From: Leuctra nigra
Lineage: Eukaryota > Arthropoda > Insecta > Plecoptera > Leuctridae
Direction of reading: 5' to 3'
Assembly: GCA_934045905.1 (NCBI GenBank)
Contig: OW203771.1
Coordinates: 20,964,069 to 21,028,068 of the forward strand
Length of the DNA: 64,000 nucleotides
The notes below the pieces were generated by a model, which saw only the letters and a program-made list of their open reading frames with translations, had not been told where the DNA came from and searched no databases. This document shows positions 26,736-51,691 of the stretch, one piece after another; positions within the stretch are counted from its first letter, which is position 1; every line of letters begins with the position of its first letter. Made by a program: the position numbers and the translations under genes.

Positions 26736-26837
26736 TTTTTATAATGCAGTCTGAGAAAGAAATGGGACCTTATGGTCGAATGGGTATTTCATAGAAGTTA
26801 TCGCTAATCACAGTCCTTAGTCATAATGCATAAAAAC

Positions 26838-28602: not shown

Positions 28603-28675
28603 TTCCTCGAGTGGGACTCGAACCCACGACCTTCCGATATCCAGTCAGATGCTCTACCAGCTGAGCTATCGAGGC
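28603..28675 (-). tRNA. tRNA-like sequence, inverted duplicate in 3' LTR
   Basis: Same tRNA-like sequence as at 28,947-29,019, on the other strand, in the extra 260 bases found only in the 3' LTR. With its partner it could form a hairpin of more than 100 base pairs. It is probably a rearrangement product, not a separate gene. Confidence 0.55.
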
Positions 28676-28946
28676 AGTTCACAGTGCAGCGGCTTTGTTC
28701 CAATATAAGCTTTTATTAACATTTTATTTTTTTTATTAACTTTTATTAACATTCACCTAACTGAGGGATTCAGTAAAAATCATATTTCATACATATGCGC
28801 ACTCATCTGCTTATGAGAATACCAAGTCGAATGAAGTTAGTCAGTTGACAAACGTGGATGAAATTCACGGTCTTCTGACCCTATCTTCAAAATCGGTAAG
28901 TTGCTAACGCAGCTTATATTGGAACAAAGCCGCTGCACTGTGAACT

Positions 28947-29019
28947 GCCTCGATAGCTCAGCTGGTAGAGCATCTGACTGGATATCGGAAGGTCGTGGGT
29001 TCGAGTCCCACTCGAGGAA
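28947..29019 (+). tRNA. tRNA-like gene inside the 3' LTR, antisense to the element
   Basis: It folds as a cloverleaf with D arm GCTC/GAGC, anticodon stem TCTGA/TCGGA, T arm GTGGG/CCCAC and acceptor GCCTCGA/TCGAGGA (first pair mismatched). A box (TAGCTCAGCTGG) and B box (GGTTCGAGTCC) are consensus and TTTT follows. The loop CTGGATA gives anticodon GGA, but there is no long variable arm as serine tRNA needs, so it is a tRNA relic or SINE head and not a normal serine tRNA. The same segment is in the 5' LTR, so it was part of the element before insertion. Confidence 0.6.
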
Positions 29020-29680
29020 AATCTTTTCACATTGCAGTTGGTATTTATTAACATTCACCTAACTGAGGGATTCAGTAAAAATCATATTTCATGATAAATA
29101 CCTTGTTTGAAGATTGTAGAGGCGGAGTGTGGTTTGTGAAAACGCACAAGTGCAGAAATCCTCTGGAATCGTAGTTGTACTTGCAGCGAAGATTTAAATA
29201 ATATACTTTTCTTTTGAACTTCGAATTTATAAAAATATAGAAAATATTCTTATCATAAACTATTATTGGAAATATAATAATCGTCTGATTATCTTTGAAA
29301 TAAGTACTTTTAATTGTTGAATAACTTTTCTTGATATTTAAAATATTATAATTGAAAATGAAATGATTGTGATTTGGGAATAATAAGGATTTGTAGGGAT
29401 TTTAGTACCTTGGGTTGTATCCTTTTGTGAAGAACTTGTAGAAATCGAAGTCACTTTGAAACAAAGGGTGTTTATTACACTTTTCTTGAAATACACCACT
29501 TTTACAACACTTTGAACTTTTGAACAGTAGAAACTTTGCGTTCACACTACTTGAACAAAATTAACTCTTAATGAGTTTACTTAACTTCACTTTAAAAGAG
29601 AAAGATATTTAAAAATAACTTGAAGATTGACTTTAAATTAATATTAAAGAACAGGCCGAAATTACTAACAGGTAGTATGA

Positions 29681-32159
29681 AGCATGAAGCATGATGTTAA
29701 TATAATCATGGGGGACTTTAATGCTAAAGTAGGACAAGGAAGAACTGTGGGAGTCGTTGGTGAATTTGGTTTGGGTGTAAGGAATGACAGAGGAGACCGT
29801 CTGGTCCAGTTCTGCCAAGAAGAGGATCTTGTAGTCCTCAATACATTCTTCAAATTACCATCGAGGAGGCTGTACACCTGGAAGTCACCTCAAGATGGAG
29901 CTGGGAACATAGTTCGGAATCAAATAGACTACATCCTCATCAACAAACGGTTCAGAAACTCTTGTCAGGCAGTCAAATCCTATCCAGGAGCGGACATAGC
30001 TTCAGATCACAACCCTCTCGTTGGCTCTATGAAGCTTCGTCTTAGAACAATTCACAGGGAGAGAAGATCAGCGAGAATCGATGTCAGCAGGGTGAAAGAA
30101 ACTGACATAAGTAAGAATGTGGCAGGTGATTTGGCGGAGGGTTTTAGGAATATCCAAAGCGTGAACATCTGTAATGTTGAGGACTTGTGGATGGGAGTGA
30201 AGCAGGTGTTTGTGACAGTGGAGAGGAAGCATCTGGAATCTGTTAAGAGGCCTAAACAGCACCATTGGATGACGGAAGAAATATTGACACTTATGGATGA
30301 GAGACGAAAATGGAAGGCTTATAATCACACAAAGTACTGGGAAATTCATAGATTGATCAGATCAAAAATATTAAGCGCCAAAGAAGAGTGGATGGCAGAA
30401 AAATGTCACGAGATAGAATTGCTGCAGCAGAAACATGACAGCTTTAATCTGCATAAGAAGATAAAAGATGCCTTGGGAGTGTATCGGAAGAAAGGGGGTG
30501 GAGTGTTGGTAGACAACAATAACAAACTGGTTGCTAATATTGATGAGAAACTGAAACTCTGGACAGTCTACATAGAGCAGTTATTTGAGGATGATAGGCA
30601 AGAGGAGCACGATGTAATTGAAGCAGACATGGGTCCAGTTATCATGAGTGAGGAGGTGATACGTGTTATTCGGCAGGCGAAGAACGGCAAAGCTGCAGGT
30701 CCGGATGAAGTATACACTGAACTTCTCAAGTTGATAGACAATGACGGCATGAATGTACTGGTTGATCTCTTCAATCGTGTGTATAGCACTGGATGTATTC
30801 CAGCAGACTGGCTTAAGTCAATCTTTGTTACTTTGCCCAAGAAGATCAATGCTAAGAGATGTGAAGAGTTTCGGACTATTAGTCTTATGAGTCATGTACT
30901 TAAATTGTTTCTCAAAATAATCCATAATCGAATTCACAGAAAGTGCGAAGAGGTGATGACAGAATCTCAATTCGGATTTAGGAATGGCCTTGGTACGAGG
31001 GATGCCAATTGTTCTGCATGCAAGTATTAGTGCAGCGTTGTCAAGATATGAATAAGGACGTTTATGCTTGTTTCATTGATTATGAGAAAGCGTTTGATAA
31101 GGTCAAACACGGGAAATTAATGGAGCTATTGCATAACATTGGCCTGGACAGCAGAGATATTCGCATCATAGCAAATCTGTATTGGAATCAGAAGGCAGTC
31201 GTGAAAGTTGAAGAGAGCCTTTCCGAGGAAGTCCTGATTCGGCGTGGTGTTCGGCAGGGTTGTGTTTTGTCACCGTTATTATTCAATATTTACTCGGAAG
31301 CTATACTGGCAGAAGCTTTGGATGGCGCAGTAGAAGGTATCGTCATCAATGGGGAGCTGGTGAACAGTATAAGATACGCCGACGACACAGTCCTGCTGGC
31401 TGACAACTTGGAAGATCTGCAGTCGCTGTTGGAGAAAGTTAATGTTGCAAGTAACCACAGCGGTCTACGTATGAACTTGAAAAAGACGAAGTTTATGGTT
31501 GTTTCAAAGCTAAGGAACATTTACGCTCAGTTAGTGTTGGATAACGTTGTTATCGAGCGCGTACATCACTACAGATATCTTGGTTGTTGCGTGAATGATC
31601 AATGGGAATATACTCAAGAGGTCAAGAGTCGTATCGAACAAGCACGCTCAGCATTCACTAATATGAGGCAATTACTATGTAATCGCAATCTTAACTTAGA
31701 TCTGAGAATGCGCATGGTCAGGTGCTACATATTTCCCGTATTGTTGTATGGACTTGAAGGTTGGACCTTAAGCAAGTTGCTATGCAAGAGACTGGAAGCT
31801 TTCGAGATGTGGGTTTATCGTCGCATGCTCCGAATCTCATGGGTGGATAAAGTTAGAAATGTCGAAGTGATGGAACGAATGAATAATAACTTAGAGGTGA
31901 TATTTTCCATCAAAAGACGAAAGCTCGAATACTTTGGACACATCATGAGGGGCAATAAATACAGGCTCTTGCAATTAGTCTTACAAGGGAAGATTGAGGG
32001 ACAGCGTAGACCTGGCAGGAGGAGGACTTCATGGCTCAAGAATCTGAGGGATTGGTTCGGGCAGAGCACGGGGTCCTTGTTCAGAGCTGCAGCATCCAAA
32101 GATGAAATAGAAATGATGATCGCCAACCTTCATTAGAAGAGGGCACATGAAGAAGAAGA
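29681..32159 (+). mobile_element. RTE-type non-LTR retrotransposon, 5'-truncated, inserted in the LTR
   Basis: AGTATGA is duplicated at 29,674-29,680 and 32,160-32,166. The 5' LTR has the unoccupied site at about 50,985-50,992, which fixes the boundaries. The 3' end is a GAA repeat, as in many RTE-type elements. It starts inside the endonuclease, so it is 5'-truncated. Confidence 0.92.
29684..32136 (+). pseudogene. RTE-type endonuclease/reverse transcriptase, frameshifted
   Basis: The first frame (29,684-31,030) holds the endonuclease C-terminal part: GDFNAKVGQG, then NQIDYILINKR and SDHNPLVGSM with the catalytic histidine. It continues into the reverse transcriptase fingers (GKAAGPDEVYTELLK). 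A frameshift near 31,005-31,015 moves to the second frame (to 32,136), which has CFIDYEKAFDKV, VRQGCVLSPLLFNIYSEAI and the active site RYADDTVLLA at about 31,372-31,400. The C-terminal domain carries LCKRLEAFEMWVYRRMLRIS and a Gly-His-Ile-Met block typical of this group. The protein would prime cDNA at a nicked target. Truncation and frameshift make it dead. Confidence 0.9.
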
Positions 32160-32868
32160 AGTATGATTTTGGAAGGAAAAAGGAAATACTCTGGACTTCA
32201 AGAAAATCTTACATAATTAACCAAGAGACAGCCTGGTCAACCAGCAGGGGTTATCCTGAAGGGGAGAGGAGCTTGACAAGAGACAGCCTGTCAAAGACTA
32301 AAGTCTTTTGCTCAGTCACTCTGGTTTTGTTACCATCCACGGTCCGCACAGAGGCACCCGGAAGACTTACTCAAATCTATTTTTAGAATTTCATCATTGT
32401 GATGCAACAACCTGTAATATTATATTCTAGCTTTGACGGCAGAGGTCAGTAGCTATACTTACTAGAGGACCACTTCACTCCTGGACCACATGTCCCATCT
32501 ACTGGAGATTGCTCAACTAACAGAACTCAATTATGTCCATCTAGAAGCTAACTGTATTACCTCCAGAAGAAATGACTTTGAGTTTGAACACTACAATATG
32601 GTGTTGATTAATTTAGAAAAACACTTGTTTCAAATTAATGAGATTAACAATAAATGATTAATTATATTGATGAGACTTCTTAGTTACTGTCTCCTATTCT
32701 ATCCCATAGTTTGATTATTTAAATAATAATATATAAGAGTTGAGGTTTGAAGTTTAAATAACTATTGATTAAGATGATCAATGGTTTCTATTAATTAATT
32801 AGATGATACCAATAGATAATTGGTATTGAATGATTTTATATAAGAGTGACCAGGGTCACCTTACTACA

Positions 32869-32883: not shown

Positions 32884-35071
32884 GAAAATTCATCTATAAC
32901 ATTTAATGTTGTAGTGAAATGTAGAAAATGAAATATTAAAATCATGAAATTCATACAAACTAAGAATAAAGTAATAAATATATAAGAAATATTGAAATGT
33001 GCGTTACTATGATCAAGAATAATAATGAAGAAAGAAGCTACTCTTTAAATACTAAAAAGAAAAGTTCCAATGACCATCTTCTCCATTGCTGTTGTGAGCC
33101 CCAACGTTTGTGACAGTGACTCAGTGACGTCAAGGTCGAAGAGCTGGACTGCGTGAAGGACACGATCTTGTTCTCGTGGACGTCGCGGCGTCGCGATCAT
33201 CGCCAGATGGCGGTTCTTCAGGATGACGACATCAGAGCGACTCTAAGTGGAAGTCGATGTTTAAGAATGGTCGTATGACGAGGATTGTATTGTGATGGAT
33301 AATGAAGATGCTTTCATTATTAATGTCAAATACGTCGTTACGTTTGACATTCTCTTGAAGTACCGAAAATTTGTTGAATTGTACTGGATTGTGCATTAAA
33401 TTCCGTGAAGAGGAAATCAAGGTGATCGCAATGTTGATCAATCTTGACCGGAAATTGTGCACTAATGACTGAGGAAATGTGTGGAAATTGCTTCTTGAAG
33501 TATGGAATCTGGATTATTTTTGGTTTGGAAATTTTGGACACTTGAAGAGAATTGCGCTTCTTCTGCGAATGGGAACATCTTTTTCATGCTTCTTTTGATG
33601 TGAATTGCAAGTATAGATTTGCCAGTTGAATATCTCTTGGGTTGTCGTCTCGTAGCAGAGAGACATTGCATTCTTATCGTCCTAATGGATGGACGAAGAT
33701 TCCAAAGGAAGAGCTTTTGAAGTTCTCGACGATCTGAAGACATACAATTATACAATCTTGAAGCTGGCGACTCTTGATCCTGGATTGTTCTGGATGAACA
33801 ATGTAGATACTCGAAGTAGAGAAACTCGAAGTAGTTCGAATTGTTTGCCAAGGTAATAGGTACTTTGGAAAAGGGTTTAGGGATTTTGGAAATAAGAATT
33901 GTTAATTTTGTTATATTTTTGGATCATAGTAATGTATAAGAAGATTATTTAGTAACTAATAGAAAGTAAATAGAATTGAATATTAGTGTCATGCATAGAA
34001 ATATTGTTTTATGAACATTATATAAATACATTGAAAATTGATAATTGAAAATTAAATCAAGCATGAAAATTATTTTTAACTGTTAATCACGTAGCCGGAC
34101 TTCCTATTGAAGTGTGCCACTGCCAAAATAAAATAATAATAAAATAAAAGCATAGTAATAAATGATAATTGCAAGAAAACGATCTTAAAAAAAATATAAT
34201 ATGAATCAAATGAAACATAGAAAACATGCAAAATATGGTCAAGAAAATTATTGATTACTTGAATTTTATTCAATATCATTGTATCAAAGAAAATTATTTC
34301 TATATGTTTTCAGAGAAAATCAAAAGATTGCGAAATGATTTGACCTATAAACGATATAAAACCTAAGTGGTTTGAAACATCTCGATAAACTACGTGAAAT
34401 TATCCAGAATCTGAGATAAAACACTCGTATGGAGAGAAATAGATCATCAAAATGATGAAAACCAATCATATTTCCAAAGGAAATATTAGAAAACACCAAA
34501 GAAATCGAATAATCTATACGAAAATAACTTTAAACAAAGTTATGAAAAGAACAACGAGTTGAAGAATCTTTTAAAAAGATCGACTCAAGTTGGCTCAGGC
34601 AGCTAAGTAGCTTTTGTAGCGAACTGTACTGCCCATGCCGACCCCTAGCGGCAGCCTCATGAACTGGTGTTTACGACTTTAAAGTCCTTGGCCGTGTGTG
34701 AGCCACAGAGACGTGCACTTGACGACGACGTCGTAAACAAATCAGCTGTTTCGCTATGTTGGTCAGTAAAACAAGGTAAAACTGACGTGTTTTCTTTGAT
34801 GTAGCAAAACGTTTGCTATCCCATTTCAATCAAACAAAATACGAACTTTATTGAAAACACACTAATAAATGATAATAAAATAAACCAGAATTCGTCATAT
34901 TGACGAGTAAACGACGAAAGAAACCATTTTCCAAGCAAACCAACAAAATAAATTCAAACTGAAGAAATGAAAAGAAATTATGATATTTACAACTACGCTA
35001 AATAAGGGACTTTTGACCACAACATTAACCTGGCTTTTCATGTATACCGTTTATCGGTAGGATTGTACGCA
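32884..35071 (-). other. Non-coding 3' internal region of the Gypsy-type element
   Basis: About 2.2 kb lies between the polypurine tract and the Helentron-like insertion. The longest open frames are 129 residues or less and show no envelope features (no signal peptide, fusion peptide or transmembrane pattern). I see no env gene. Confidence 0.6.
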
Positions 35072-36302
35072 CTAGGAAAACGCTCTGAGTAACGCGTTGA
35101 TGAGCGAGCACGGACATGCGCAACACCTCGAACCGAAATTCTGTCTATTGAAAATGTCATTAAAAGCCAATAATTCTTGAATTTCGTCACAGACTTGTAT
35201 GAAAATCTCCAAGAATTCCTAAAATATTGGTCCCAATAACCACGCAAAGTTTTAAGTTTATCGATTGAACCTTTATGATTGAACGATTCCTTGTTAATTT
35301 CCAAAAATCACAGGATATCGTTCAAAAAAATGTTAAACGGTCATCAGTTTCATAATACGTTTGAAAGTTTCTGCTCCAACAACCTTGAAGTGAAGATTCG
35401 AAGATTCCGTGAAATATGAAATTCGAGAAATATGATAGCCAACACGCAAAATATCCGTAAACTGTCGATAACTTTTGAATTTAAACACAGTTTAAAGTTC
35501 GTTCACAATAAGAATTTCACTGACGTTTTAGTCGATCACGTCGTTCATTGGTCAGTCACTTGAACACTGCCCTGTCAATGGCAAGACCTTCTTCTTTGTA
35601 TTATTGAAATTGTATAAATTATGTCAAATACACTATTTTTATTATTAGAAAATATTAGAAAAATTCAATCAAATTGATTTATTTCCATCTACAGTCGTAT
35701 TATACATAGTTTTGGATTATTCTATTGATATTTTCATATGTAGGTATACAATTGTTCATTTGACTACAGTAGTATCTACACGGCCGCCATTACGGCTTGC
35801 AATTCTAATCGTGAATGAACTTTAGTCTGAAAATTGTCAAAAATACAGATAATGTTGGACCCGATGACCACGCAAAATTTTAAGTTGATCGGTTAAACGG
35901 TTCAGGATTAAATTTCAAAAAGCACATGAAATATTTTTTTAAATTTTAACCAATGGGAGGATTTGGCTGAAAATTTGTTAAATAAGAGACAATGTTGGTC
36001 CTAATGACCATGCAAAATATAAGGTCGATCACATTTGTCGAAGTCCATTTTCATTTTTCAGCCTATCAGGAGATGTTTATTTAAATTTCAACCAATGAAT
36101 GGATTTCAAAAAAATTAGGGTCTGCAAACAGAGAAGGTTGGTTTTACATGTGTGCAAAATTTCAGATCGATCGGTGAAACGGTGCGACCTGTGTATCGGC
36201 TATTAGCAGCCAAAAACAAAAAAAAAAACAAAAAAAAAAACAAAAAAAAAACAGAGGTCCGTGCCAAAAGAGCCAAAAGTAGACGCTCGCTTCGCTCGCT
36301 CA
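35072..36302 (-). mobile_element. Helentron-like element (copy e) abutting pol
   Basis: Reverse orientation: the CTAG end with hairpin lies at 35,072 and the TGAGCGAGCGAAGCGAGCG start at 36,302. It has an internal A/T-rich run and a segment matching the copy d minisatellite unit. The first bases of the element supply the TGA stop that now ends the pol reading frame. Confidence 0.75.
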
Positions 36303-37997
36303 ATAATTATGCACTTGTAAATCTCGCAAATCGTAACGAGGATTCATAGTTCTTGACTGAGGTAATGGTGGCGTCCCGTCAGATTCGGTCATCGAATCGT
36401 ATGACGTAGATTGTTTTGAAGAATTATCAAGTGTTTGTGAATTTGTAGAATCTTGCGAAGAGTTTGCTTCGTTTAAATCGACTGAGCTAGAACTCGACTG
36501 TGCAGTGGAGCAAGTTGGCTCAGGTTCCCCTCTTTCTCCTGCGATTGGCTGAACTGGAGTAGATGTGACAACACGGTCACCAAATGATGGGGTTGAGAAT
36601 TGATTGCTCAAAATTGATCTTTCTGAAGCATTTCGAGGACTTGTATGCGGTGTCATTTGACTTTCTATTGAAGAATTATTTGAATAAGATTCTTGGAGAG
36701 TTCGTGAAGGAGTTGTAGATATGTTCGCTGGGCTGTTATGGACATTGCAGTTATTTACTGATGGAATATTACGAGCATTATTAGTTCGAGGAAGAAAAAC
36801 AAAATCATATGCAGGCTCGATATCATTTAGAGGGTCGTAAGCATAATTAGCTCTCTCATTGTTATCGTTTGCTTGATCATCATCAGTGTCAGAACTGTCA
36901 ATAAGATTCATGTTATCATCAAACACTTCAGGATTGAATGTGTTGAACTTTTTCAAACGGGCGCAATGAACAATTTGCTTTTTACCGGTTTGAAGATCTT
37001 GTATTTCAAAGTTCACATCTGATTTAGCCGAAATGATACGGCTAGGACCTTTGCTGTAAAACTTGCTAAATTTTCTTCCACTCATCTTATCGTAGATTGG
37101 AGTGTGTAAGAAAACTAGGTCTCCTGGAGCATAAGTTACGGGTTTAGATTTTCTGTTGTAGTACTCTTCCCTGATCTCAACGTTTTTCTTCAAAGTTTCT
37201 CTTGCTAACTTATAAGCTTTTTGAAGACGAGTGACTAATTGCTGTGCGTATTCGCTTACCGGTTCTTCTTCTAAGACTCTTTTTGGTGTTAAAATAGTTT
37301 CATACGGTAATCGTGGATCTCTTCCATAAGTTAGAAAGAAGGGACTTTCTCCGCTGGACTTGGAGATATTAGTCCTCAGAGCTAGCTGAATCATACCGAG
37401 TAACTGATCCCAGTCTTTTTCATGAGCATAATGACTCATCATGGTCCTAATCGTGCGATGATAACGTTCAATATTATTTGCAGATGGATGATAACTACTT
37501 GTTAGTATATGTTTAATATCCATCATCTTACAGACTTCTCTGAACAAATGTGAGGTAAAGTTCGATCCTCGGTCACTTACAATTATCTCGGGTGTATAGA
37601 ATGATCAGATATTAGGCGATCAACTAATGCAGTTGCGACTGTTTGAGCAGTCTGATTTGGCAATGCAATTGGAGTAACCCATTTTGTAAAGTGATCTACT
37701 AGACTCAGTACGTATCGATTTTGTCTTTTGGTCGTTTTTAATGGACCTAAAATATCAATACTATAGCGAATTCCTGGTCCAGATAGTTCAGGGAATCTTT
37801 GTAAAGGCGGTCGTTCATCTGTCACTGGACGTTTAGATGACTGACAGCTCACACAGTTCTTAATGAACTCTTCAACATCGCGGAACATACCTTTCCAGTA
37901 GACTCTTGACTTTAATAGCTGATGTGTTCTAGTAACACCTGAATGTGCGGCAAAGCCGCGGGCGATGAATGGAATGTTTGCAATATTGACTTTTGCA
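36300..37997 (-). pseudogene. Gypsy-type integrase and C-terminal pol region
   Basis: After a frameshift at about 37,998 the HHCC zinc domain reads through AHSGVTRTH and CVSCQ. The first catalytic Asp is in YSIDILGP. A second frameshift near 37,580 separates this from the rest, where the second Asp is in SDRGSNF and the Glu in NIERYHRTI. Spacing between these two is 34 residues, one less than the usual 35. A GPY/F-like region follows (KFYSKGPSRII). Then comes a long acidic and serine-rich tail (about 200 residues) ending YDLRDLQVHNY. The integrase would insert the cDNA. The frameshifts make it inactive as read, unless they are assembly errors. Confidence 0.85.
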
Positions 37998-39173
37998 TTA
38001 TTTAGGTATTACAAGTCTATCGTGTCTTTCTGGAGGAATACGAATCTTATACAATAACCGATCATCATCAAGAGCATACAATGGATCCGATGAATTATCA
38101 ATTAATAATTTATTGATAATTGGCGATAGTAAAGGATCATTTCTCTGTAATTCTTGAATTCTAAATCTATCCATGATAGGTTCATATGGTAATTGTTCGC
38201 GTATAAGATTCATTCTTAATGGTTCTTCATGATTTTGTTTCGGATGAGATGAAATACCTTGTTCATCTTCTTCTTTGCATAACTTGAGATTTGTCTCAAT
38301 TTGCTTGTCAATGTCTTGAAGGAAGTTGTTGCCTTTTGTCTTTTTCACTTTAGATGGTAATTGCTCAATGTAGTTTATTACTTCATTCGTGCTGTACAAG
38401 ATATCATTCGGATTATCTTGTTCATTGTCTGAATCACTAGGTGGATTTCGTGACAATGAATCCACATGAGGTATTTTGTGACCTGGGACATACTTCAGGT
38501 CAAATGAGTACTGACTCAAGAATAATGTCCATTTAGTGATTCTAGAGCTGTGACTTGGTAATTTTAACAAAAATGACAATGCACGATGATCAGATTGAGC
38601 TGTAAAGTGAGCACCTGCTAGGTACACATGGAATTGACGTACTCCAAACACCAATGCTAACAATTCAAGTTCGGTAACTTGATAGTTACGCTCGGCTGAC
38701 TTTAATTGTCTGGATGCAAAGGCGATAGCTTTTTCTTCCCCATTTATTGTCTGTGATAGTATTGCACCAATCCCTATTCCACTTGCATCTGTAGTGAGAG
38801 TGAAGGGAAGGTCAAACCTGGGGTAAGCTAATATTGGAGCTTTGCAAAGTGCATTTTTGAGCTTATTAAATGCTACTGTATGTTCCTGATGCCAATGGAA
38901 TCTAGAACTCTTTTTTGTAAGTTCTGTGAGGGGTTTGGCAATATCAGCATAATTTGGAACATATTTGCGATAATAAGATGTCAATCCAATAAAAGTTCTA
39001 ACATTACCAACATTTTTAGGCTGAGGAAACTTTTTGACAGACTCAATTATTCGCGGATTTGTAGCTACACCCTCTCTTGATATTAAATGTCCTAAGAAGA
39101 CTGTTTCTTTTGCCAGGAATGAACATTTAGATGGTTTTATCTTGAGACCAGCCTTTTCTAGGCGTTTAAACAC
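37998..39173 (-). pseudogene. Gypsy-type RT connection and RNase H
   Basis: This is the continuation of pol after an in-frame TAA at 39,195. It begins within the RT thumb (KPSKCSFLAKETVFLGHLIS) and reads through GLTSYYRKYVPNYADIAKPL. The RNase H domain has TDASGIGIGAIL, ELELLALVFGV and QSDHRALSF. A linker with PHVDSLSRNPP leads to the integrase. RNase H removes genomic RNA during reverse transcription. Confidence 0.9.
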
Positions 39174-39194: not shown

Positions 39195-42100
39195 TTAATC
39201 TATGGTTTTTGAGAAGATTACTATGTCATCAAGATAATTGACACATTCCTTATTTATTACGTCTTGCAATACGTAATTAATTAGGCGTTGAAACGTGGCA
39301 GGTGATGTACAAAGTCCGAATGGCGAACGATTAAATTGATATAAATTGGTCGCTGTAGAAAAAGCTGTTTTGTGTTTATCCTCAGGTGCGATAGGAATAG
39401 TATTAAAGGCTCCATGAAGGTCGATTGTTGAGAAGTATTGCGCTCCTCCTAACAAATCTAACACGTCAGAAATTCGCGGACAAGGCGTTGCTTCAGGTAT
39501 TATATGTTGATTGACCTTTCGATAGTCTATCACGAGCCTATATTCCTTTGGTTCGCCTGGTAATGTTCGTTTACTCACAACTAAGCAAGGTGAAGACCAC
39601 GCACTTCTAGAATGTTCAATTATCCCGTGTTCAAGTTGTTCTTGAATTAGCTCATCAATTATTCCACGTTCGTGATATGGTACTCTGTATGGAGCTTGTT
39701 TTACGGGCTTGACATCTGAATTCATTGATATCTGATGTTCAATCAATGGGCAATATCCAACTTCATCTCCTTCAAGATAAAACGATTTCGAATAGCGATG
39801 AATTAATCCTTTAACTGCATCGTATTTCTCAGGAGGAAGTTCCCCTAATTTACATTTTTCATACAATATAGAAAATCTTCTATCTAGTTCTTCTTGTTCT
39901 TCTTTATTTACAGGTTGATGCGTATCAGCATAAGCATTAATAGTAGCAACAAGCAGCGGATATTCTTGACTGATATCATTATCTACTGGCGTCTCTTTGT
40001 CTTGATAATCACAAATTTCTAAATGCCCAAGCAAAGTATCTTCTGGGACTTCTGTCTTGGCATTAGTAATATTTGTGACTAAAACTTTCAATTCCAATTC
40101 CTCATTTTCTGTGTACAATGCATCTGCAGCTCGAATTCCTAATGGCAGATTACTGTGAGGAATGAATAAGACTGATTTCTTGTCTTCTGGATTTCTTTTC
40201 TTGTTTAAAAATCGTTTCTGCCGGACTTCTACTAAAGTCTCGGTGTTTGGCAAAATTACTTGACTTTTAACAGTTCGCACCTGAACTCTCATTGATTGAG
40301 AAACCGAACTTTTCGCGTTCGGTGTATCACCGACTTTAAATGGCATCATGATAGGTTGATCCATATTACTGCTAGCTAACTCAGCTAGATTGATTAACTC
40401 ATTAAGAGTGATATTTGACCCATTGGTAAATTTTGCAGGTTCCAAAATGGGTTGATTGATACTTTGACTTGCTGTTTCAGCAAGATTTATAAGTTCTTCG
40501 AGAGTGAGATTTTTCCCATTAGTAAAATTGATAGATTCTATACAATGATTCTGACAACTACAAATAGGTTCATTGAATGACTGATTACAATTAGATTCAA
40601 CGACTGACTTCTGAATAAGAGGTGTGTGTTCATTAAACGACTTCTTACAGCACGTATTTGCAACATTGGCAACAAAATTAGATGCATCATAATTAGTAGC
40701 AATAGAACTGGCAACACAGGCCATACGATCATTTCCTGCATGAATCGTAGAAAAAGAATTTGCTACACTGGCATAATAATAGGGCTCTTCGTGAGACTTT
40801 GAAAAATCACTTGTATCATTCACAAGATGATTAGATGCATCATTAGAAAACGAGCTTGCTACTCGGGTAATATGATAAGGCTTCAAATTAGCCAATGACT
40901 TCATAAGAGTGTCGACAAATATTAACTTGCAAGAATTTGCACTACAATCAAACGAAACTTTCTTTTTAACTTTCTTCTGAGAATCCAAACTAGATTGAAG
41001 ACATCTCTTCTTAGTTCCAGTTTCTTCTTTTGTTTCTTCCTTTGAAATAGGTATATCAGACATAGAATCCACATACACCTTCTCATCTAGACTTGTTGGT
41101 GAAATCAAAGGGAGTCCTGATTCGATTGGCCAATGACACACGATCATTTGAATGTCGGTGTCTTGAAAAATGCGTATCAACATGGGTCTGACTTGATCCC
41201 ACTTGAGACCATCTAGTCCACACCCAAGAGTGGGTATGGCTAACCGGGTGACACCGTGTTGAACACATAATTTCTTCAGCTGGCACAACGATTCTTCTAA
41301 TTTTTGAAGAGTTGGTTTCATGTAGAAACATTCCTTCGTTATTAAATAGAAGATTGAACGACCCTTTTCTCTGAGGAAAACAACTTTTGGATTATGATTA
41401 TGACTCATTTTTCTTAATGCGTCAATATTTCCGAAATGATTTCTAAACTCCAAACCGAGGCCGCGGGATAATTTCATGTCCCGTGAACAACAATGCGCTA
41501 TAGAAACACTGTCTGGAGAAGACAACAAATTTCCTCTGATTTCCACTAAATTAAAATTAGCTTTTGACTGATTACTAATTGATTCAGACTCAATATTGGA
41601 TGAATATATCTTATCAAGAGCGGGGCACGGTAAGTCGACTCCTAGCTGATTCCCCACCAATTTCTCAGAACCGGTGGACTTCATTTTCTTGATACAAAGA
41701 CATTTTCCTTTTCCAATATTGTTTTTCAAATCTTTTTCTAAACCTAATTTGTTTGATACATACTGATCAGAAAATGTTGTGTCTGGATCGGGGCACAGTA
41801 ATATGTCGGCTCCTTGCTGATTCCCCACTAATTCCATAAAATTAGTGGACTTCATATTCCTGACATTTTCACTTAATAACGCATCAGTATTATCCAAACA
41901 ATGTCTTAAATTTACTTGAACTGACTTGTTGTTTGAATTCTCATGTATTTTATTTGAAGACTCGACTACGCCAAATGACTGATCACTGCTCACAGTATTT
42001 GCGTAAGGAATTACATTTTTACCATGACGAACACACCTGTCTTTAGTATCCAATAACATATGAAAACGTGACATAAAGTCATAACCGATTAGGCCAATGT

Positions 42101-42602
42101 GACCTCCCGTATCTAAAGAATCATCACCCACAACGAAGTTGAAACTATACGTGAAATCTCCTAACTCGATTTCTAAATTTGAAAAACCTTTTATAGGCAA
42201 TAAATCTCCTGTGACACTATAAATAGGTCTTTCGAACTGATATATTGGAATATTAGCTTTCTTAACAATATTCTCATGAAATAAACTAATCTCAGAACCA
42301 CTATCAATTAGTAGATGATAGGGTATAAATTCTGTACGACAAGAAGGATTGATAATAAATCCTTTGACGTTAGGCTTATCTCCGTTCAATACGTGATAAT
42401 TTTGATTACAGAGTAGCCTCAATGTTTCTGTCAACCTTTCTTCGGTTAATCCGAGAGGTGACCTGGGGTTTGACGACGTCGTACTTGCTCGTGAAAACCC
42501 ACAGGATGACGAAAATCCGTCCCTGTGTTGTTTGACTGTTGATTGATGGCTTGACTCTTGTGTTCTTCTGACTTCTGTTTCGGAATCATTGCACAATTGC
42601 AA
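39195..42602 (-). CDS. pol: Gypsy-type Pol: protease, macrodomain, reverse transcriptase
   Basis: This open frame of 1,135 residues begins in a different frame from gag and overlaps its end. The aspartic protease has LLIDSGSEISLF (Asp100) and IGLIGYDFMSR. An OARD1/TARG1-type macrodomain occupies about residues 349-490. Residues 490-830 are a serine/asparagine-rich linker with internal repeats (FTNG..LTLEELINLAE twice). Before the macrodomain, another pair repeats LVGNQ.G.D..CP. The reverse transcriptase starts near residue 950 (PLIEHQISM, SAWSSPCLVVSKR, EYRLVIDYRKVNQH). It has FSTIDLHGAFNTIP and active site NYLDDIVIFSK near 39,215-39,240. The frame ends at a TAA within the palm-thumb junction, after which coding sequence continues in the same frame, so one base change caused the break. 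The start given is a TTG; the true start may be by frameshift from gag. Confidence 0.9.
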   Translation of the reverse strand: MQLCNDSETEVRRTQESSHQSTVKQHRDGFSSSCGFSRASTTSSNPRSPLGLTEERLTETLRLLCNQNYHVLNGDKPNVKGFIINPSCRTEFIPYHLLIDSGSEISLFHENIVKKANIPIYQFERPIYSVTGDLLPIKGFSNLEIELGDFTYSFNFVVGDDSLDTGGHIGLIGYDFMSRFHMLLDTKDRCVRHGKNVIPYANTVSSDQSFGVVESSNKIHENSNNKSVQVNLRHCLDNTDALLSENVRNMKSTNFMELVGNQQGADILLCPDPDTTFSDQYVSNKLGLEKDLKNNIGKGKCLCIKKMKSTGSEKLVGNQLGVDLPCPALDKIYSSNIESESISNQSKANFNLVEIRGNLLSSPDSVSIAHCCSRDMKLSRGLGLEFRNHFGNIDALRKMSHNHNPKVVFLREKGRSIFYLITKECFYMKPTLQKLEESLCQLKKLCVQHGVTRLAIPTLGCGLDGLKWDQVRPMLIRIFQDTDIQMIVCHWPIESGLPLISPTSLDEKVYVDSMSDIPISKEETKEETGTKKRCLQSSLDSQKKVKKKVSFDCSANSCKLIFVDTLMKSLANLKPYHITRVASSFSNDASNHLVNDTSDFSKSHEEPYYYASVANSFSTIHAGNDRMACVASSIATNYDASNFVANVANTCCKKSFNEHTPLIQKSVVESNCNQSFNEPICSCQNHCIESINFTNGKNLTLEELINLAETASQSINQPILEPAKFTNGSNITLNELINLAELASSNMDQPIMMPFKVGDTPNAKSSVSQSMRVQVRTVKSQVILPNTETLVEVRQKRFLNKKRNPEDKKSVLFIPHSNLPLGIRAADALYTENEELELKVLVTNITNAKTEVPEDTLLGHLEICDYQDKETPVDNDISQEYPLLVATINAYADTHQPVNKEEQEELDRRFSILYEKCKLGELPPEKYDAVKGLIHRYSKSFYLEGDEVGYCPLIEHQISMNSDVKPVKQAPYRVPYHERGIIDELIQEQLEHGIIEHSRSAWSSPCLVVSKRTLPGEPKEYRLVIDYRKVNQHIIPEATPCPRISDVLDLLGGAQYFSTIDLHGAFNTIPIAPEDKHKTAFSTATNLYQFNRSPFGLCTSPATFQRLINYVLQDVINKECVNYLDDIVIFSKTID
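41130..41558 (-). other. OARD1/TARG1-type macrodomain encoded within Gypsy pol
   Basis: The segment reads IRGNLLSSPDSVSIAHCCSR, MKLSRGLGLEFRNHFG, FYLITKECFYMKPT, IPTLGCGLDGLKWDQVRPML and ends near VCHWP. It follows the whole length of the human OARD1 fold in order. The two OARD1 catalytic residues, Lys84 and Asp125, have counterparts at pol residues 423 (codon 41,334-41,336) and 464 (codon 41,211-41,213). Their spacing of 41 residues equals that of the human enzyme. OARD1 removes ADP-ribose from glutamate and aspartate side chains. No stop or frameshift lies in this domain. The activity in the retroelement is inferred. Confidence 0.88.
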
Positions 42603-43151
42603 TTAGATGAAACGACTTCTGCGTATGTACGCCGTGTTTGTTCTTCTTGACGAGGGAATGAATGTTCATTGACTGAGCAATGATTGGAGAATGATTGAGA
42701 ATGATTGGAATGATGACAACAATTAGGATTTGGATTACAATGATGTTGTTCAGGATTGAAAACTGGTCTTGAGTAAAGTGAATTGCTTGGAAGTTAGATT
42801 GCTGGTAATTATTAGGATTCATATGCTTGGAGTATCCCGACTGAGAAAATCGCTGCGACGGAGGAGACTGAGGATATCTCTGATTTCCTAGATTTTGTTG
42901 ATTGTAGTTTTGTTTCTGACCGGACGATTGATAACCGCTTGACGAGTTTCTTGAATCGATGTTCCTTTGTCTTTGATAACACATATCAAAAGAATGTCCA
43001 GGTTTGAGACAGAACGTGCAAGAGACGAAATTATTCTTGCTGCCGTTGCTCTGACTCATACCCGTGTATGGTCTTGCGTTGCCGGTCGGCTGGGTAGGTC
43101 CAGTGTTTATACGACTTTGTTTATTATTAGTCTGTCGCTGGCTCGAAGGAG
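42586..43151 (-). CDS. gag: Gag C-terminal part with CCHC zinc knuckle
   Basis: The knuckle is CTFCLKPGHSFDMC (42,979-43,020), a C-x2-C-x4-H-x4-C motif that binds RNA in nucleocapsids. It is flanked by Gln/Asn/Ser-rich sequence. The frame ends at 42,586, overlapping the start of pol by a few codons in another frame. The last 55 or so residues before the stop are of unusual composition (Ile/Asn-rich), so a frameshift may lie near 42,770. The N-terminal part of gag is at 48,924-49,842, across a TTAA-flanked insertion, and the two parts are in register. Confidence 0.8.
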
Positions 43152-43223
43152 TTAAGGGGAAGGACCGGCTGACTGCTCCTAGAGAATCAGCTCTAATTGC
43201 TATTGTGGGCGGGGTTTTTATAG

Positions 43224-44763
43224 GTAAACTAGAGGGACCCGTCATGTAAAACATGACCAATGCGCACCAGTGGGGTATGCGTAAATTAGCATGAGTTGAG
43301 ATATTTGGCAGCAGAGTGTGCGTTGTTGATAACTTTATAGTTATAACACACTACACACATAACGTCGTTAGCATGACTAAAATGCCCAACAGAATACGAA
43401 AATGAGTTACGAAGGAAAGTAATTTAACCATAACTATTATGGAAAAGCCATTTCAAATGAGTTTACAAAGTAAAACAAATTAAGAAAAAAACGCCAGCCT
43501 TTTTGCATTGTGTCGATTCATGATACATAGAGGTTTGCTATCCCAGAAAGAAGGATTTAACTTAGTGTGTGGGGGTTGGGTTTCATTATATCTGTCTCTC
43601 CGAGGTAGAAGGGTGGAAATACATTTTCTCAATTTTCCGTTGCACCCTTTTGGAATGATATAATCAAGCTCATCCAATTACTATTTGACTGATGTCAATA
43701 AGTACAGCTGTATTGAAATATTCTCTTACATTACCCCAACGCATTCAATCAAATAATTACCGATCACCCATTAGAACTGTAGCTGAAATTCTTCATTATA
43801 AATGTTCATTTTAATAGATTAGAATCTGATCATTTCACTGAACTGAAACTTGATGCTACAACAGCTGACTATTTCAGCCACTGGAAAATCCACATGTGTA
43901 TTTTCTTAATATCTTATTACTAAAGTTCAGTTTATTCCTAAACTGTTAATATGATTATATTCTATTCTATTATGTTATATTATATTCTAATGACTCATGT
44001 CCCCTTTACAAAATTATGGTTTGATGAAGTCGGAAAACCTGGTTTATTAGCTCAACTCAAGAATAATTGAAATGGACTTCCGACCTTCTACTTCTAAAAC
44101 ACGGACAAACTATCAAGTTTACCCCATCTGCTTTTTTTATTATGACCGAATAGCAGAGAGGTATGTACGGTCACGTGACAGCTGTCAACCAATGAGAGCA
44201 CATTCTTCACGGTGCTATATTCGGCTTCTGATAGGTATATTGTAAAAACTAAACATTGATGCTAAAAACAGTATCAATAGGCACATTCCTTCAGTAACAT
44301 GACACCACTAATAAGAAACGATGGAAAAGTACATATTTAACAAAATAAAATATATTACAAATGTTCAATTCAATCGGCTTTGGTTTGTTGGTATTCACTA
44401 TTCAGGTTCACGGCCCATGTATAACTCAGAGAGAAGAAAATTTGATGTCAGTTTGAACGAAGTTGTCGGCATGACGTTTTCTATGTAAAGTAATTGATTT
44501 GACAGTAATTATACATTAGAGTAGATTTGTTACAAATACAAAAGCATAAAGTGTGCGTCTTAGGTAAGTTTTGGTTATTTCTTTATTCACAAAAAGCAGA
44601 AGACGTAATTTTAGACATGTTTGGCAATGTAACGCCACCATCTTAGTTATAGTTTTCAATAAATACCAATGTCAAATCGAAGCGCGCAACCGTTCCTGAC
44701 ATACACACACACACACACACACACACAGACAGACAGACAGACAGAACTGGGTAACTATAAGTA
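43224..44763. repeat. Segment shared with 56,213-58,560 (direct orientation)
   Basis: It starts ctagagggacccgtcatg and ends near cagaactgggtaactataa. The other copy carries a MITE at 57,293-57,827 that is missing here. Relative to the second TTAA-type copy, this segment plus the MITE at 44,765 is an insertion after ataggtaaa. It contains no gene. Confidence 0.75.
44703..44745. repeat. AC and AGAC microsatellite
   Basis: An AC dinucleotide run passes directly into a tract of repeated AGAC. The matching place in the second copy, at about 58,500-58,535, has alternating GCGC motifs and a single cagacagaactggg. Confidence 0.9.
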
Positions 44764-48361: not shown

Positions 48362-48927
48362 ATTTAGACAACTCCGAGGTCCGTCTGTCTCCAGTCGTCG
48401 TTGATTGTGTAAATGCCGGGGAAACTGATGATTATTGTTGACATACAAACTCTCGCTATCAGTGCACTATTTATATTTCCATGCTGTCTCTTAGGACCCT
48501 CCCATCATCCCCTTCCACACCGTTACTGGAACTCCCAGAATGTTTACTTGCAACTTCAGTCGGTTTCAGTGCCCCTGGTTTTATGCAAAACTCATAACAT
48601 TGATGGTGTGAGAAAGCAAATTGTGCCTCTACCGATCAAGTTAGAAAAAAAGTTTCAAGAGCAAAGTTGCTTGAAATTAAATCTAGTTTAAGCGTCGTTG
48701 AACCAATTTTTAAAATTATTAGTTTTATTTACTCAATAATTACGCAACATATAACTACTTATAACTTTAAGGTGATTAAAAATTTCAAATAAGTGGTCAA
48801 CGCTGCATAATCTGCAATTCATTCTCCACAACTTTGTCGCTTTAACATCTAGTCTATCTTCAACGAGACGGGGCGATAACTGCTTTCCAGCCGAGGTCCT
48901 CATTCAGAGGCTCTTCCTTCCCCTTAA

Positions 48928-49842
48928 AGAGCCGCCGCGCTGGTAATTAAAATTGCTCTTGAAACCCGGAAGGTTAGTGTTCGCGGCGCCTTGAGTGTAC
49001 GTGTCATTTCTCTGATTTGCAGTTCCATTTGCGTTTCTTGAACCCGGAAGAAAAGACTGTCGTTGATTAGTTTTCTGTATTTGGTCATGAAAACTTGAGT
49101 TTTGACCCCCAACGTTCGTCTGTTCAGACTGCACGAAATTTACACGAGATTTTCCGCGATTTTGCTTTTCAACTTCTAGAGCGAATTCCAACGCTTTCTC
49201 AATAGTTGTTGGTTTGAGAAGACCAATAAACGAGCTACCATTTTCCTGACGCAATCCAGTAATGAAAACTCGAACCAAACTACGATTTACTAAATCTTTA
49301 ATGATCGAAACTTCCGTTGGATCAAGGTGGTTAGCTTTACTGCATGCCAACTTACCGGCAAGTTTCAAACGTGTCAAATACTCTTTGGCTGATTCGCCGG
49401 GTTTTTGACAAGTTTTGTAATAGATTTGTACCAAATCGTCGGAAACTACTTCCTTTTTGAACCATGAAATGAATGTTTTACAAACTTCTGACCAAGATTT
49501 CTTAGCTAATTCGGGGTTGCTACGCAAATAGTCTGACGCGGGACCTGTTGTGCGCACTCTTAGAATCGTGACTTTTATAGAGTCATCCCATTTGCCTAAT
49601 TCGCCTACCGAATTGATTGATTTTATGAATTCGAATACTGAAACTGAACCAGTTGTTCCTGAGAAGTTAGGAACAAGTGGGAGCAATCCTGCAATGTTGG
49701 GGAAAAGGACTGTGCTTGGATTTTCAATATACAATCCTTGACTTCCATCCAACACATTTTCAACTACGTTTTCACCATTGTTGCTATCATTTTCATTACC
49801 GACATTACTCTGAACTGAATTATCAGCGTTATTATCAGCCAT
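48928..49842 (-). CDS. gag: Gag N-terminal part (capsid region)
   Basis: The start ATG at 49,842 opens an acidic, Asn-rich leader (MADNNADNSVQSNVGNENDS). A helical capsid-like region follows: PNFSGTTGSVSVFEFIKSI, then WSEVCKTFISWF, KPGESAKEYLTRLKLAGKL and FITGLRQENGSS. This order matches Ty3/Gypsy capsid domains of the retrotrans_gag type. The tail is Gln/Asn/Arg-rich. The open frame runs to a stop at 48,904 that lies inside the TTAA-flanked insertion, so the zinc knuckle is cut off. Capsid would form the particle in which reverse transcription occurs. Confidence 0.85.
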
Positions 49843-49977: not shown

Positions 49978-51691
49978 TGTAGTCTCAGCGGCCTTTAGCG
50001 AGCGGCTTGGCGATTAATGATTTTAATTGCAATGAGTTTATAAAAGTTTTGGTAACGTTTGCTGACCACCACTTATTTTTACTCTAAGAAAAATAAGAAA
50101 AGAGAGAATTTGGAAAATAACCAAAATAAAATCAAATTTCATACATATGCGCACTCATCTGCTTATGAGAATACCAAGTCGAATGAAGTTAGTCAGTTGT
50201 CAAACGTGGATGAAATTCACGGTCTTCTGACCCTATCTTCAAAATCGGTAAGTTGCTAACGCAGCTTATATTGGAACACAGCCGCTGCACTGTGAACTGC
50301 CTCGATAGCTCTGCTGGTAGAGCATCTGACTGGATATCGGAAGGTCGTGGGTTCGAGTCCCACTCGAGGAAAATCTTTTCACATTGCAGTTGGTATTTAT
50401 TAATAAATACCTTGTTTGAAGATTGTAGAGGCGGAGTGTGGTTTGTGAAAACGCACAAGTGCAGAAATCCTCTGGAATCGTAGTTGTACTTGCAGCGAAG
50501 ATTTAAATAATATACTTTTCTTTTGAACTTTGAATTTATAAAAATATAGAAAATATTCTTATCATAAACTATTATTGGAAATATAATAATCGTCTGATTA
50601 TCTTTGAAATAAGTACTTTTAATTGTTGAATAACTTTTCTTGATATTTAAAATATTATAATTGAAAATGAAATGATTGTGATTTGGGAATAATAAGGATT
50701 TTTAGGGATTTTAGTACCTTGGGTTGTATCCTTTTGTGAAGAACTTGTAGAAATCGAAGTCACTTTGAAACAAAGGGTGTTTATTACACTTTTCTTGAAA
50801 TACACCACTTTTACAACACTTTGAACTTTTGAACAGTAGAAACTTTGCGTTCACACTACTTGAACAAAATTAACTCTTAATGAGTTTACTTAACTTCACT
50901 TTAAAAGAGAAAGATATTTAAAAATAACTTGAAGATTGACTTTAAATTAATATTAAAGAACAGGCCGAAATTACTAACAGGTAGTATGATTTTGGAAGGA
51001 AAAAGGAAATACTCTGGACTTCAAGAAAATCTTACATAATTAACCAAGAGACAGCCTGGTCAACCAGCAGGGGTTATCCTGAAGGGGAGAGGAGCTTGAC
51101 AAGAGACAGCCTGTCAAAGACTAAAGTCTTTTGCTCAGTCACTCTGGTTTTGTTACCATCCACGGTCCGCACAGAGGCACCCGGAAGACTTACTCAAATC
51201 TATTTTTAGAATTTCATCATTGTGATGCAACAACCTGTAATATTATATTCTAGCTTTGACGGCAGAGGTCAGTAGCTATACTTACTAGAGGACCACTTCA
51301 CTCCTGGACCACATGTCCCATCTACTGGAGATTGCTCAACTAACAGAACTCAATTATGTCCATCTAGAAGCTAACTGTATTACCTCCAGAAGAAATGACT
51401 TTGAGTTTGAACACTACAATATGGTGTTGATTAATTTAGAAAAACACTTGTTTCAAATTAATGAGATTAACAATAAATGATTAATTATATTGATGAGACT
51501 TCTTAGTTACTGTCTCCTATTCTATCCCATAGTTTGATTATTTAAATAATAATATATAAGAGTTGAGGTTTGAAGTTTAAATAACTATTGATTAAGATGA
51601 TCAATGGTTTCTATTAATTAATTAGATGATACCAATAGATAATTGGTATTGAATGATTTTATATAAGAGTGACCAGGGTCACCTTACTACA
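49978..51691 (-). repeat. 5' LTR of the Gypsy-type element
   Basis: 1,714 bp starting TGTAGT and ending ACTACA, with target copy ATAGG just outside at 51,692-51,696. It is the uninterrupted version of the 3' LTR and shows the empty site for the RTE-type element at about 50,990. It contains one tRNA-like gene. The promoter of the element lies here, but I see no certain TATA box. Confidence 0.93.
50299..50371 (+). tRNA. tRNA-like gene inside the 5' LTR, antisense to the element
   Basis: Same cloverleaf as at 28,947-29,019. One change in the D region (TAGCTCTGCTGG in place of TAGCTCAGCTGG) weakens the A box slightly. The B box GGTTCGAGTCC and downstream TTTT are kept. It would be transcribed by polymerase III opposite to the LTR promoter. 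See the other copy for the anticodon problem. Confidence 0.55.

What the first reader, a model, noticed from the sequence alone, without database searches (positions are those of the whole stretch)
41130..41558. A Gypsy-type retrotransposon carries an OARD1/TARG1-type ADP-ribose hydrolase domain inside pol
Seen: an uninterrupted macrodomain lies between protease and RT in the same open frame, with LITKE and GCGLDGLKW. Known: OARD1 catalysis uses Lys84 and Asp125. Both have counterparts (residues 423 and 464), and the 41-residue spacing is identical. Macrodomains in several RNA viruses oppose PARP-based host defence. Inference: this retroelement captured a cellular OARD1 gene and may remove ADP-ribosylation placed on its proteins or nucleic acids. 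I cannot say whether such elements have been described before.
Basis: partly seen in the sequence, partly recalled or inferred. Interest (0 to 1): 0.92.

Follow-up and report, generated by a model that had tools for sequence, protein, structure and literature searches.

The report
ADP-ribose eraser domain in retrotransposons
A jumping gene in this animal genome carries, inside its polymerase protein, a domain that matches a human enzyme which strips ADP-ribose tags off proteins and nucleic acids, and many other, partly unrelated jumping genes in the same genome carry it too, which suggests that they may use it against a host chemical defence.

Summary
The macrodomain lies on the MINUS strand at 41130-41555, between protease and RT in one open frame, and is OARD1/TARG1-type: phmmer E 2e-30; AF2 pLDDT 87.5; Foldseek top hit TARG1, TM 0.88/0.94. 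Lys423 and Asp464 match Lys84 and Asp125. The window copy is dead, but the domain is no one-off: two capped searches of the own genome give at least 182 places. Ninety-five that I read form 34 families: 15 Gypsy (between PR and RT) and 19 LINE (in ORF1). At least one copy keeps the dyad in 33 of 34. Finite pairwise dN/dS values are 0-0.29. In one pair the macrodomain block looks exchanged by recombination. The sequences group with animal OARD1; the number of captures is unresolved. Most likely it is an active mono-ADP-ribosyl-hydrolase protecting the element from host PARPs. Activity is untested, and one recently mobile family lacks the Asp. Nearest precedents: macro-domain ORFs in fish retroviruses; NADAR domains in algal Gypsy Pol.

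The parts
41130..41555 (-). OARD1/TARG1-type macrodomain (residues 350-491 of the pol open frame)
   Evidence: phmmer to human C6orf130 E 2.2e-30; AF2 pLDDT 87.5, Foldseek TARG1 E 6.4e-16; coordinates
41334..41336 (-). codon of Lys423, counterpart of OARD1 Lys84
   Evidence: invariant in the 12-sequence alignment
41211..41213 (-). codon of Asp464, counterpart of OARD1 residue 125
   Evidence: invariant in the 12-sequence alignment
39195..42602 (-). pol open frame (1135 aa): PR - macrodomain - spacer - RT
42075..42323 (-). aspartyl protease (res 94-176), sub-threshold Pfam match with LLIDSGS motif (motif read by eye)
   Evidence: E 0.0015; tblastn of this piece finds it upstream of the macrodomain in related loci
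39204..39551 (-). reverse transcriptase (res 1018-1133)
   Evidence: PF00078 E 7.5e-22
37998..39173 (-). RT end and RNase H open frame, separated from the above by a stop
   Evidence: (PF17919 E 4e-36, PF17917 E 2.2e-33)
36300..37547 (-). C-terminal part of integrase
   Evidence: PF22938 E 3.8e-7
42586..43260 (-). gag 3' part with one zinc knuckle (CTFCLKPGHSFDMC)
   Evidence: no Pfam match; motif read by eye
48904..49842 (-). gag capsid part
   Evidence: PF03732 E 4.6e-4 (below cut-off); its relatives lie upstream of PR in L031, L032
43261..48903 (.). sequence separating the two gag parts, partly repeated at 53.6-58.4 kb: a probable later insertion
   Evidence: inference
41058..41990 (-). approximate block (res ~205-515) that is divergent from locus L005 although the PR side (90-97% nt) and the stretch after it (res 526-615, 89-93% nt) are similar: probable recombination block carrying the macrodomain

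Best explanation
The segment is an OARD1/TARG1-type (ALC1-like class) macrodomain of animal-cell origin, kept as an accessory enzyme domain of retrotransposons. In Gypsy elements it is made inside Pol between protease and RT (so delivered with the particle's enzymes); in LINEs it is part of the ORF1 protein of the RNP. Proposed mechanism: it hydrolyses mono-ADP-ribose from Asp/Glu of the element's own or nearby host proteins, and/or from phosphate ends of its RNA or cDNA, undoing host PARP marking during reverse transcription and integration. SHOWN: identity, position, family breadth, conserved Lys-Asp, purifying selection, and divergence of the block in one pair that is best read as exchange. 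INFERRED: catalytic activity, substrate, the benefit to the element.
For: OARD1 by sequence and fold. At least 182 places in the own genome. In the 95 macrodomains read (34 families at 80% identity), Lys is kept in 93 and Asp in 80; 14 of the 15 Asp losses are in a single family; at least one copy keeps both in 33 of 34 families. 15 Gypsy families (PR upstream in 15 of 15; RT downstream in 14 of 15) and 19 LINE families (EN downstream in 19 of 19). NG86 on 26 pairs that I chose: 15 finite values, 0-0.29; 9 saturated at synonymous sites with pN 0.09-0.33; 2 without synonymous change. Within the window-L005 pair omega is 0.19 in the macrodomain. Block: same-residue codons identical/different 50/36 in the macrodomain against 168/14 on the PR side and 225/33 on the RT side, Fisher p 1.1e-10 and 3.9e-8. 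The 34 retroelement representatives group with animal OARD1, apart from 8 of 8 bacterial and 5 of 6 viral-contig rows. The host has PARP catalytic domains (12 exon-level hits). Papers, passages seen: TARG1 acts on acyl-ADP-ribose, MARylated proteins and nucleic-acid phosphate ends (PMC7050489); SIRT6 MARylation of KAP1 silences LINE-1 (PMC4695847).
Against: No activity, expression or phenotype was tested. The L017 Gypsy family lost the Asp (D to G) and the phosphate-loop Gly (G to E) in 14 of 14 copies, yet 12 of them are 99.5-99.9% identical over 3477 bases with 2136-2138-aa open frames, so an intact dyad is not needed for mobility there. A large Gypsy group in the same genome (75 RT rows) shows no macrodomain place within 6 kb in the capped lists, so elements prosper without it. 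The window's phosphate loop reads LSRGLGL where OARD1 has MGAGIAV. The repeat-rich spacer (res ~601-775) also diverges between the window and L005, so the macrodomain block is not the only divergent stretch of that pair.
Confidence: 0.6

Rival explanations
1. Reader, not eraser: the domain binds ADP-ribose or PAR and tethers the integration complex or LINE RNP to PARylated chromatin or DNA-damage sites; hydrolysis is incidental.
For: The L017 family keeps the domain in frame without the Asp and is recently mobile. ALC1-like class macrodomains include readers (PMC7050489, passages).
Against: At least one copy keeps both Lys and Asp in 33 of 34 families, more than binding alone should need; L017 also changed the loop Gly to Glu, which should harm binding (inference).
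Confidence: 0.2
2. Housekeeping of nucleotides or nucleic acids: the substrate is O-acetyl-ADP-ribose, or ADP-ribose on DNA/RNA ends made as a by-product of nicking and reverse transcription, with no host defence involved.
For: TARG1 accepts these substrates (passages). The shared needs of Gypsy and LINE elements are reverse transcription and integration, not a shared protein (general knowledge).
Against: No direct test. Presence in two retrotransposon orders plus block exchange in one pair resembles an interaction with the host more than a metabolic need (inference).
Confidence: 0.12
3. Structural passenger: a captured fold that serves as a spacer or folding unit in the polyprotein and is decaying.
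For: Loss of the Asp in one family; loop changes in others, for example SYSLD in the L032 family.
Against: dN/dS 0-0.29 in the finite pairs; dyad kept in families that share as little as 31% identity with the window domain; presence in two element orders.
Confidence: 0.07
4. Artefact: a host OARD1 gene or a chimeric assembly placed beside RT by chance.
For: None found.
Against: Same order in many copies on many contigs, 140 of 150 matches without inner stop; independent records P0004 and P0005 from other sources.
Confidence: 0.01

Closest known systems
Human OARD1/TARG1 (C6orf130), ALC1-like macrodomain class
   Same: 36-37% identity over the domain, same fold (TM 0.88/0.94), Lys-Asp dyad with 41-residue spacing
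   Different: Encoded inside a retrotransposon polyprotein, not as a free protein of about 150 aa; MGAGIAV loop changed
Macro-domain ORFs in teleost epsilon-like endogenous retroviruses (Basta et al. 2009, as told in one sentence of review PMC4977317; passages seen; the original is not held)
   Same: A macro domain carried by an LTR retroelement
   Different: Told there as additional ORFs of fish ERVs; class of macrodomain, residues and phylogeny not seen by me. Here it is inside Pol between PR and RT of Gypsy elements, and in LINE ORF1
[quoted passage not shown] passages seen)
   Same: An ADP-ribose-related domain acquired by both Gypsy Pol and LINE ORF1
   Different: Another domain family; that paper suggests possible horizontal transfer from bacteria; here an animal OARD1 origin
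GDSL esterase and DEDDy exonuclease ORFs shared among bdelloid LTR elements and Penelope-like elements (PMC5408684; abstract and passages)
   Same: One accessory enzyme type shared by unrelated retroelement classes
   Different: Other enzymes, separate ORF3; intragenomic variation reported there as mostly neutral, purifying selection between families here
CR1-like LINE ORF1 with PHD and esterase domains (Kapitonov and Jurka 2003, title seen in a reference list; ORF1 modules, PMC4120745: one search found 0 occurrences of 'macro')
   Same: LINE families here have SAP, PHD and GDSL-type matches in ORF1 (SAP in 2, PHD in 2, GDSL-type in 3 of 4 examined, two of the last below cut-off)
   Different: The added OARD1-type macrodomain
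Viral macrodomains of coronaviruses and alphaviruses
   Same: Macro fold; counter-PARP role recalled from general knowledge
   Different: Further away: Foldseek ranks IBV ADRP at 1e-6 and VEEV at 1.4e-6 against TARG1 6e-16

Membership tests
OARD1/TARG1 (ALC1-like) macrodomain | Whole-domain homology and fold | tested here: met
   phmmer E 2.2e-30; AF2 and Foldseek, TARG1/C6orf130 in the first 8 rows
OARD1/TARG1 (ALC1-like) macrodomain | Catalytic Lys84 and Asp125 (the review prints Glu125 for the latter; the OARD1 sequence printed has Asp in GCGLD) | tested here: met
   Residues 423 and 464, spacing 41; at least one copy keeps both in 33 of 34 families
OARD1/TARG1 (ALC1-like) macrodomain | Groups with animal OARD1 in a tree | tested here: met
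   99/90 split from 8 of 8 bacterial and 5 of 6 viral-contig rows; order within the animal side is unresolved
OARD1/TARG1 (ALC1-like) macrodomain | Hydrolysis of Asp/Glu-, acyl- or phosphate-linked ADP-ribose | not testable with these tools
   needs purified protein
Ty3/Gypsy LTR retrotransposon | Pol order PR-RT-RNase H-IN | tested here: met
   IN core (rve) not found by Pfam in the window copy, only the IN C-terminal domain; P0004 has rve and H2C2
Ty3/Gypsy LTR retrotransposon | Long terminal repeats | tested here: inconclusive
   No LTR pair found in the window; the 709-bp identical pair at 32160/50983 is a LINE end
LINE (non-LTR) retrotransposon, for L033-L036 and relatives | ORF2 with APE-like endonuclease and RT downstream of ORF1 | tested here: met
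   (EN in 19 of 19 families, weak, E 3e-6 to 3e-5, in three; RT lies within the pieces held for only some)
LINE (non-LTR) retrotransposon, for L033-L036 and relatives | Clade (CR1, L2, Daphne ...) | not tested
   CR1-like only by analogy of the ORF1 domains
Viral MacroD-type counter-defence macrodomain | Closest relatives among viral macrodomains of that type | tested here: not met
   TARG1-like by sequence and fold; that those viral domains are MacroD-type is recalled

The most novel reading that the evidence does not exclude
ADP-ribosylation is a general barrier to retrotransposition in some animals, and retrotransposons of two unrelated orders carry an exchangeable OARD1-type eraser cassette as a counter-defence: an anti-PARP module of transposons comparable to the macrodomains of RNA viruses, captured from host genes (in one group seen in the sawfly Athalia together with a host-like pairing of active plus degenerate macrodomains) and swapped between elements.
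Probability: 0.4. Interest if true: 0.93.

Novelty: new variant of a known kind. Interest (0 to 1): 0.83.

Why it matters
Retroelements with captured enzymes are known, and two earlier reports touch ADP-ribose biology, but an OARD1-type eraser in 15 Gypsy and 19 LINE families of a single genome, with the dyad conserved and the domain under purifying selection, would be a strong sign that hosts use ADP-ribosylation against transposons. It makes that idea testable: PARP 'writer' domains are in the same genome, the domain is small and expressible, and a natural Asp-less family gives a built-in contrast.

Tried and rejected
Plus-strand reading of the given coordinates: rejected. LTR reading of the 709-bp identical pair at 32160-32868 and 50983-51691: rejected, it is the 3' end of a LINE whose second copy has an internal deletion. 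One-off insertion: rejected. Counting captures by tree: failed; on a 60-row tree AU tests do not reject one clade for GYP (p 0.128), LINE (0.085), GYP+LINE (0.21) or GYP+P0004/P0005 (0.125), and the free tree has an unresolved backbone. Two bacterial rows hold stops read as X and one of them is a long branch. Host OARD1 gene: not identified; with a Hermetia OARD1 query the best own-genome match is a LINE ORF1 (49%), and only 150 of 379 candidates were scored, so absence is not shown. LINE-RT search of the genome, to pair LINE RTs with macrodomains: not completed. Host species: not determined. Protein search with the window pol found 2 relatives, with a LINE ORF1 2 isoforms of one Athalia gene; I did not measure the spread across animals. 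The spacer omega (0.68 against L005, 0.52 against L007) is a poor control, because the spacer holds repeats that may be misaligned. Prior-art searches: (open-licence PMC only, exact words); the one macro-domain-in-retroelement report met was the fish ERV sentence in PMC4977317.

Full report
What is there. The feature is real but on the minus strand. The open frame 39195-42602(-) reads protease, macrodomain, a spacer with near-repeats of about 30 aa (seen by eye), then RT. The macrodomain is residues 350-491 (41130-41555); Lys423 and Asp464 are 41 residues apart, as in human OARD1. Sequence search of solved structures gives C6orf130/OARD1 at E 2.2e-30, others at 1.8e-6 or worse. A model from the window segment plus 25 homologues has mean pLDDT 87.5 and pTM 0.84, and Foldseek's first eight rows are all TARG1/C6orf130 (best E 6.4e-16, TM 0.88/0.94), followed by DarG.

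State of the window copy. It is a relic: the pol frame stops just after RT, further stops lie downstream, RNase H and the integrase C-terminal part are in separate open frames, and the capsid-like ORF (48904-49842) and zinc-knuckle ORF (42586-43260) are some 5.6 kb apart, with sequence between that is partly repeated elsewhere in the window. No LTR pair was found. The claim therefore rests on relatives, not on this copy.

Relatives in the same genome. A search with the domain scored 150 of 379 candidates; all 150 matched at E 5.5e-22 or better and 140 of them have no inner stop. An insect OARD1 as query also returned 150 matches (150 of 379 scored), at least 32 of them at places not in the first list, so at least 182 places. 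Only the best candidates are scored, so this is a lower bound, and it is biased to intact copies. I read 96 macrodomains; one piece under 125 aa (L006) was dropped, and the other 95 fall into 34 single-linkage clusters at 80% identity. Domain pieces were placed by tblastn on the flanks held. Fifteen clusters (47 sequences) are Gypsy: in each, at least one copy has PR upstream, and 14 of 15 have RT downstream (together; for L191/L232 the piece held shows PR only). Nineteen clusters (48 sequences) are LINEs: an endonuclease lies downstream on the same strand in the representative of 19 of 19, weakly in three. Only representatives were classed in the clusters fetched as bare macrodomains. Some single copies in the Gypsy families have no recognised PR or RT in the piece held (L003, L006, L022, L026). 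Of four LINE ORF1s scanned, SAP matched in 2, PHD in 2 and a GDSL-type domain in 3, next to the macrodomain (L035's macrodomain and two of the GDSL matches are below cut-off). LINE copies are recent: several macrodomains within a family are 100% identical over 429-459 bases, others 99.1-99.8%.

Lineage trait, not universal. One search scored 150 of 1102 RT candidates. Of the 75 rows outside the large 42% group, 52 have a macrodomain place upstream on the same strand within 12 kb in the list: 29 of 32 at 70% identity or more, 5 of 6 at 50-70%, 14 of 15 at 45-50%, 2 of 5 at 42-45%, 2 of 17 below (one element can give two rows). Three more of these rows gain one from the list, leaving 20 of 75 without. 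The other 75 rows, mostly one family with a 1081-aa frame, have none within 6 kb. Because the macrodomain lists are capped, some 'none' entries may be misses.

Elements from elsewhere. P0004 (1709 aa, an unnamed record) and P0005 (877 aa, Athalia rosae) are Gypsy proteins with the macrodomain between RNase H and integrase, a different site. Both hold a second, degenerate macro-like stretch before the integrase zinc domain. The same active-plus-degenerate pairing occurs twice in P0006, an Athalia gene with several isoforms. A profile of these four degenerate stretches matches the OARD1-like alignment at probability 94%, E 1.1e-7. The tree joins P0004/P0005 with P0006 at 91/85, short of the starred level. 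This looks like capture of a host tandem gene, but that P0006 is a host gene is my reading of its annotation.

Selection. Pairwise NG86 on 26 pairs that I chose gave 15 finite dN/dS values, 0 to 0.29; 9 pairs were saturated at synonymous sites with pN 0.089-0.331 (L031 against L167: pS 0.78, pN 0.089); 2 had no synonymous change and one or two replacement changes. Several close pairs rest on one to three synonymous changes and mean little singly, and several pairs include a copy with a stop (that codon skipped). Between the window and L005 omega is 0.19 in the macrodomain, 0.17 in PR, 0.15 before RT, 0.68 in the spacer after the macrodomain; against L007 0.10 in the macrodomain and 0.52 in the spacer. 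The spacer holds repeats and may be misaligned, so it is a weak control.

Block exchange. In windows of 40 residues, window and L005 share 90-97% of bases in the PR part (res 1-215), 89-93% at res 526-615 and 92-97% from res 776 through RT, but only 60-72% in the windows that start at res 276-426, 82% at 451 and 70% at 476, with third-position identity 0.44-0.70 there. The repeat-rich spacer at about 601-775 also falls, to as low as 30%, so the macrodomain block is one of two divergent stretches. Among codons with the same residue, identical/different are 50/36 in the macrodomain, 168/14 on the PR side, 225/33 on the RT side (Fisher p 1.1e-10 and 3.9e-8). The plain reading is recombination that replaced the macrodomain block in one of the two lineages; the donor was not found, and only this one pair shows it.

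Catalytic residues. Lys is kept in 93 of 95 and Asp in 80 of 95. The losses: L015 Lys to Ile, L202 Lys to Asn (a copy with a stop), L163 Asp to Glu (a copy with stops), and 14 of 14 copies of the L017 family, Asp to Gly with the loop Gly to Glu. At least one copy keeps both residues in 33 of 34 families, and a majority of copies in 32 of 34. Twelve of the 14 L017 copies, those with intact flanks, are 99.5-99.9% identical over 3477 bases. This family is the main evidence against a strict need for hydrolysis; it may use the domain otherwise, be helped in trans, or be decaying.

Origin. In a 71-row tree the 34 own-genome retroelement representatives, P0004, P0005 and the 21 cellular rows lie together (99/90) apart from 8 bacterial and 5 of 6 viral-contig rows; one viral-contig row (L037) falls on the animal side. 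The backbone is open and AU tests on a 60-row tree reject none of the four one-origin groupings tried. So origin from animal OARD1 is supported, while one capture with transfers between Gypsy and LINE, or several captures, cannot be told apart.

How it most likely works. The host has PARP catalytic domains, including four hits close together on C5. TARG1 acts on acyl-ADP-ribose esters, MARylated proteins (Asp/Glu) and nucleic-acid phosphate ends (PMC7050489, passages), and mono-ADP-ribosylation of KAP1 by SIRT6 helps to silence LINE-1 (PMC4695847, passages). A domain made with Pol in Gypsy particles, or within the ORF1 RNP of LINEs, would be at hand when RNA and cDNA ends and integration nicks could be marked. 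That is inference.

What is known. Ten searches of an open-licence library listed no paper that I could recognise as reporting an OARD1-type macrodomain in Gypsy Pol or LINE ORF1; I saw listings, and passages only in the papers cited. A review states that fish epsilon-like ERVs sometimes carry macro-domain ORFs (PMC4977317; the original was not held). NADAR domains in Ectocarpus Gypsy Pol and oyster LINE ORF1 are the closest functional parallel (PMC12477816, passages). Hence a new variant of a known kind.

Noticed in passing
window 28411-32868 and 49978-51691: A LINE (ORFs 29684-32136 +) and a second copy with an internal deletion; 709 bp at the 3' ends are 100% identical. tRNA-Ser(gga)-like units at 28602, 28946 and 50298 lie in the repeated parts.
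   Followed up: partly
window 25111-25667 and 26734-27290; 11266-12106 and 27348-28188: Two direct-repeat pairs at 98.7-98.9% identity, with weaker inverted matches at 35071-36304 just beyond the pol end: possible LTRs of other elements.
   Followed up: no
L031 and relatives (G000 C1, C2, C3, C6, C10, C12, C75): Open frames of 2205 to 2275 aa differing in steps of 10 aa, which suggests an in-frame 30-bp repeat of variable number in pol.
   Followed up: no
L184 (G000 C13:45177340-45177789): A LINE-family macrodomain in a 2914-aa frame with one stop, far longer than other ORF1 frames: perhaps ORF1 and ORF2 in one frame.
   Followed up: no
G000 C5:21453650-21474288: Four PARP catalytic-domain hits within 21 kb, a possible tandem PARP cluster.
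   Followed up: no
L037-L116: 93 stretches in IMG/VR contigs encode relatives of the OARD1-like alignment (80 kept as loci); of 6 put in the tree, L037 groups with animal-side sequences.
   Followed up: partly
P0006 (Athalia rosae LOC105684241): A gene with two active-looking OARD1-like macrodomains, each followed by a degenerate macro-like stretch.
   Followed up: partly
window 61925-62636 and 17655-18395: ORFs made of tandem repeats.
   Followed up: no
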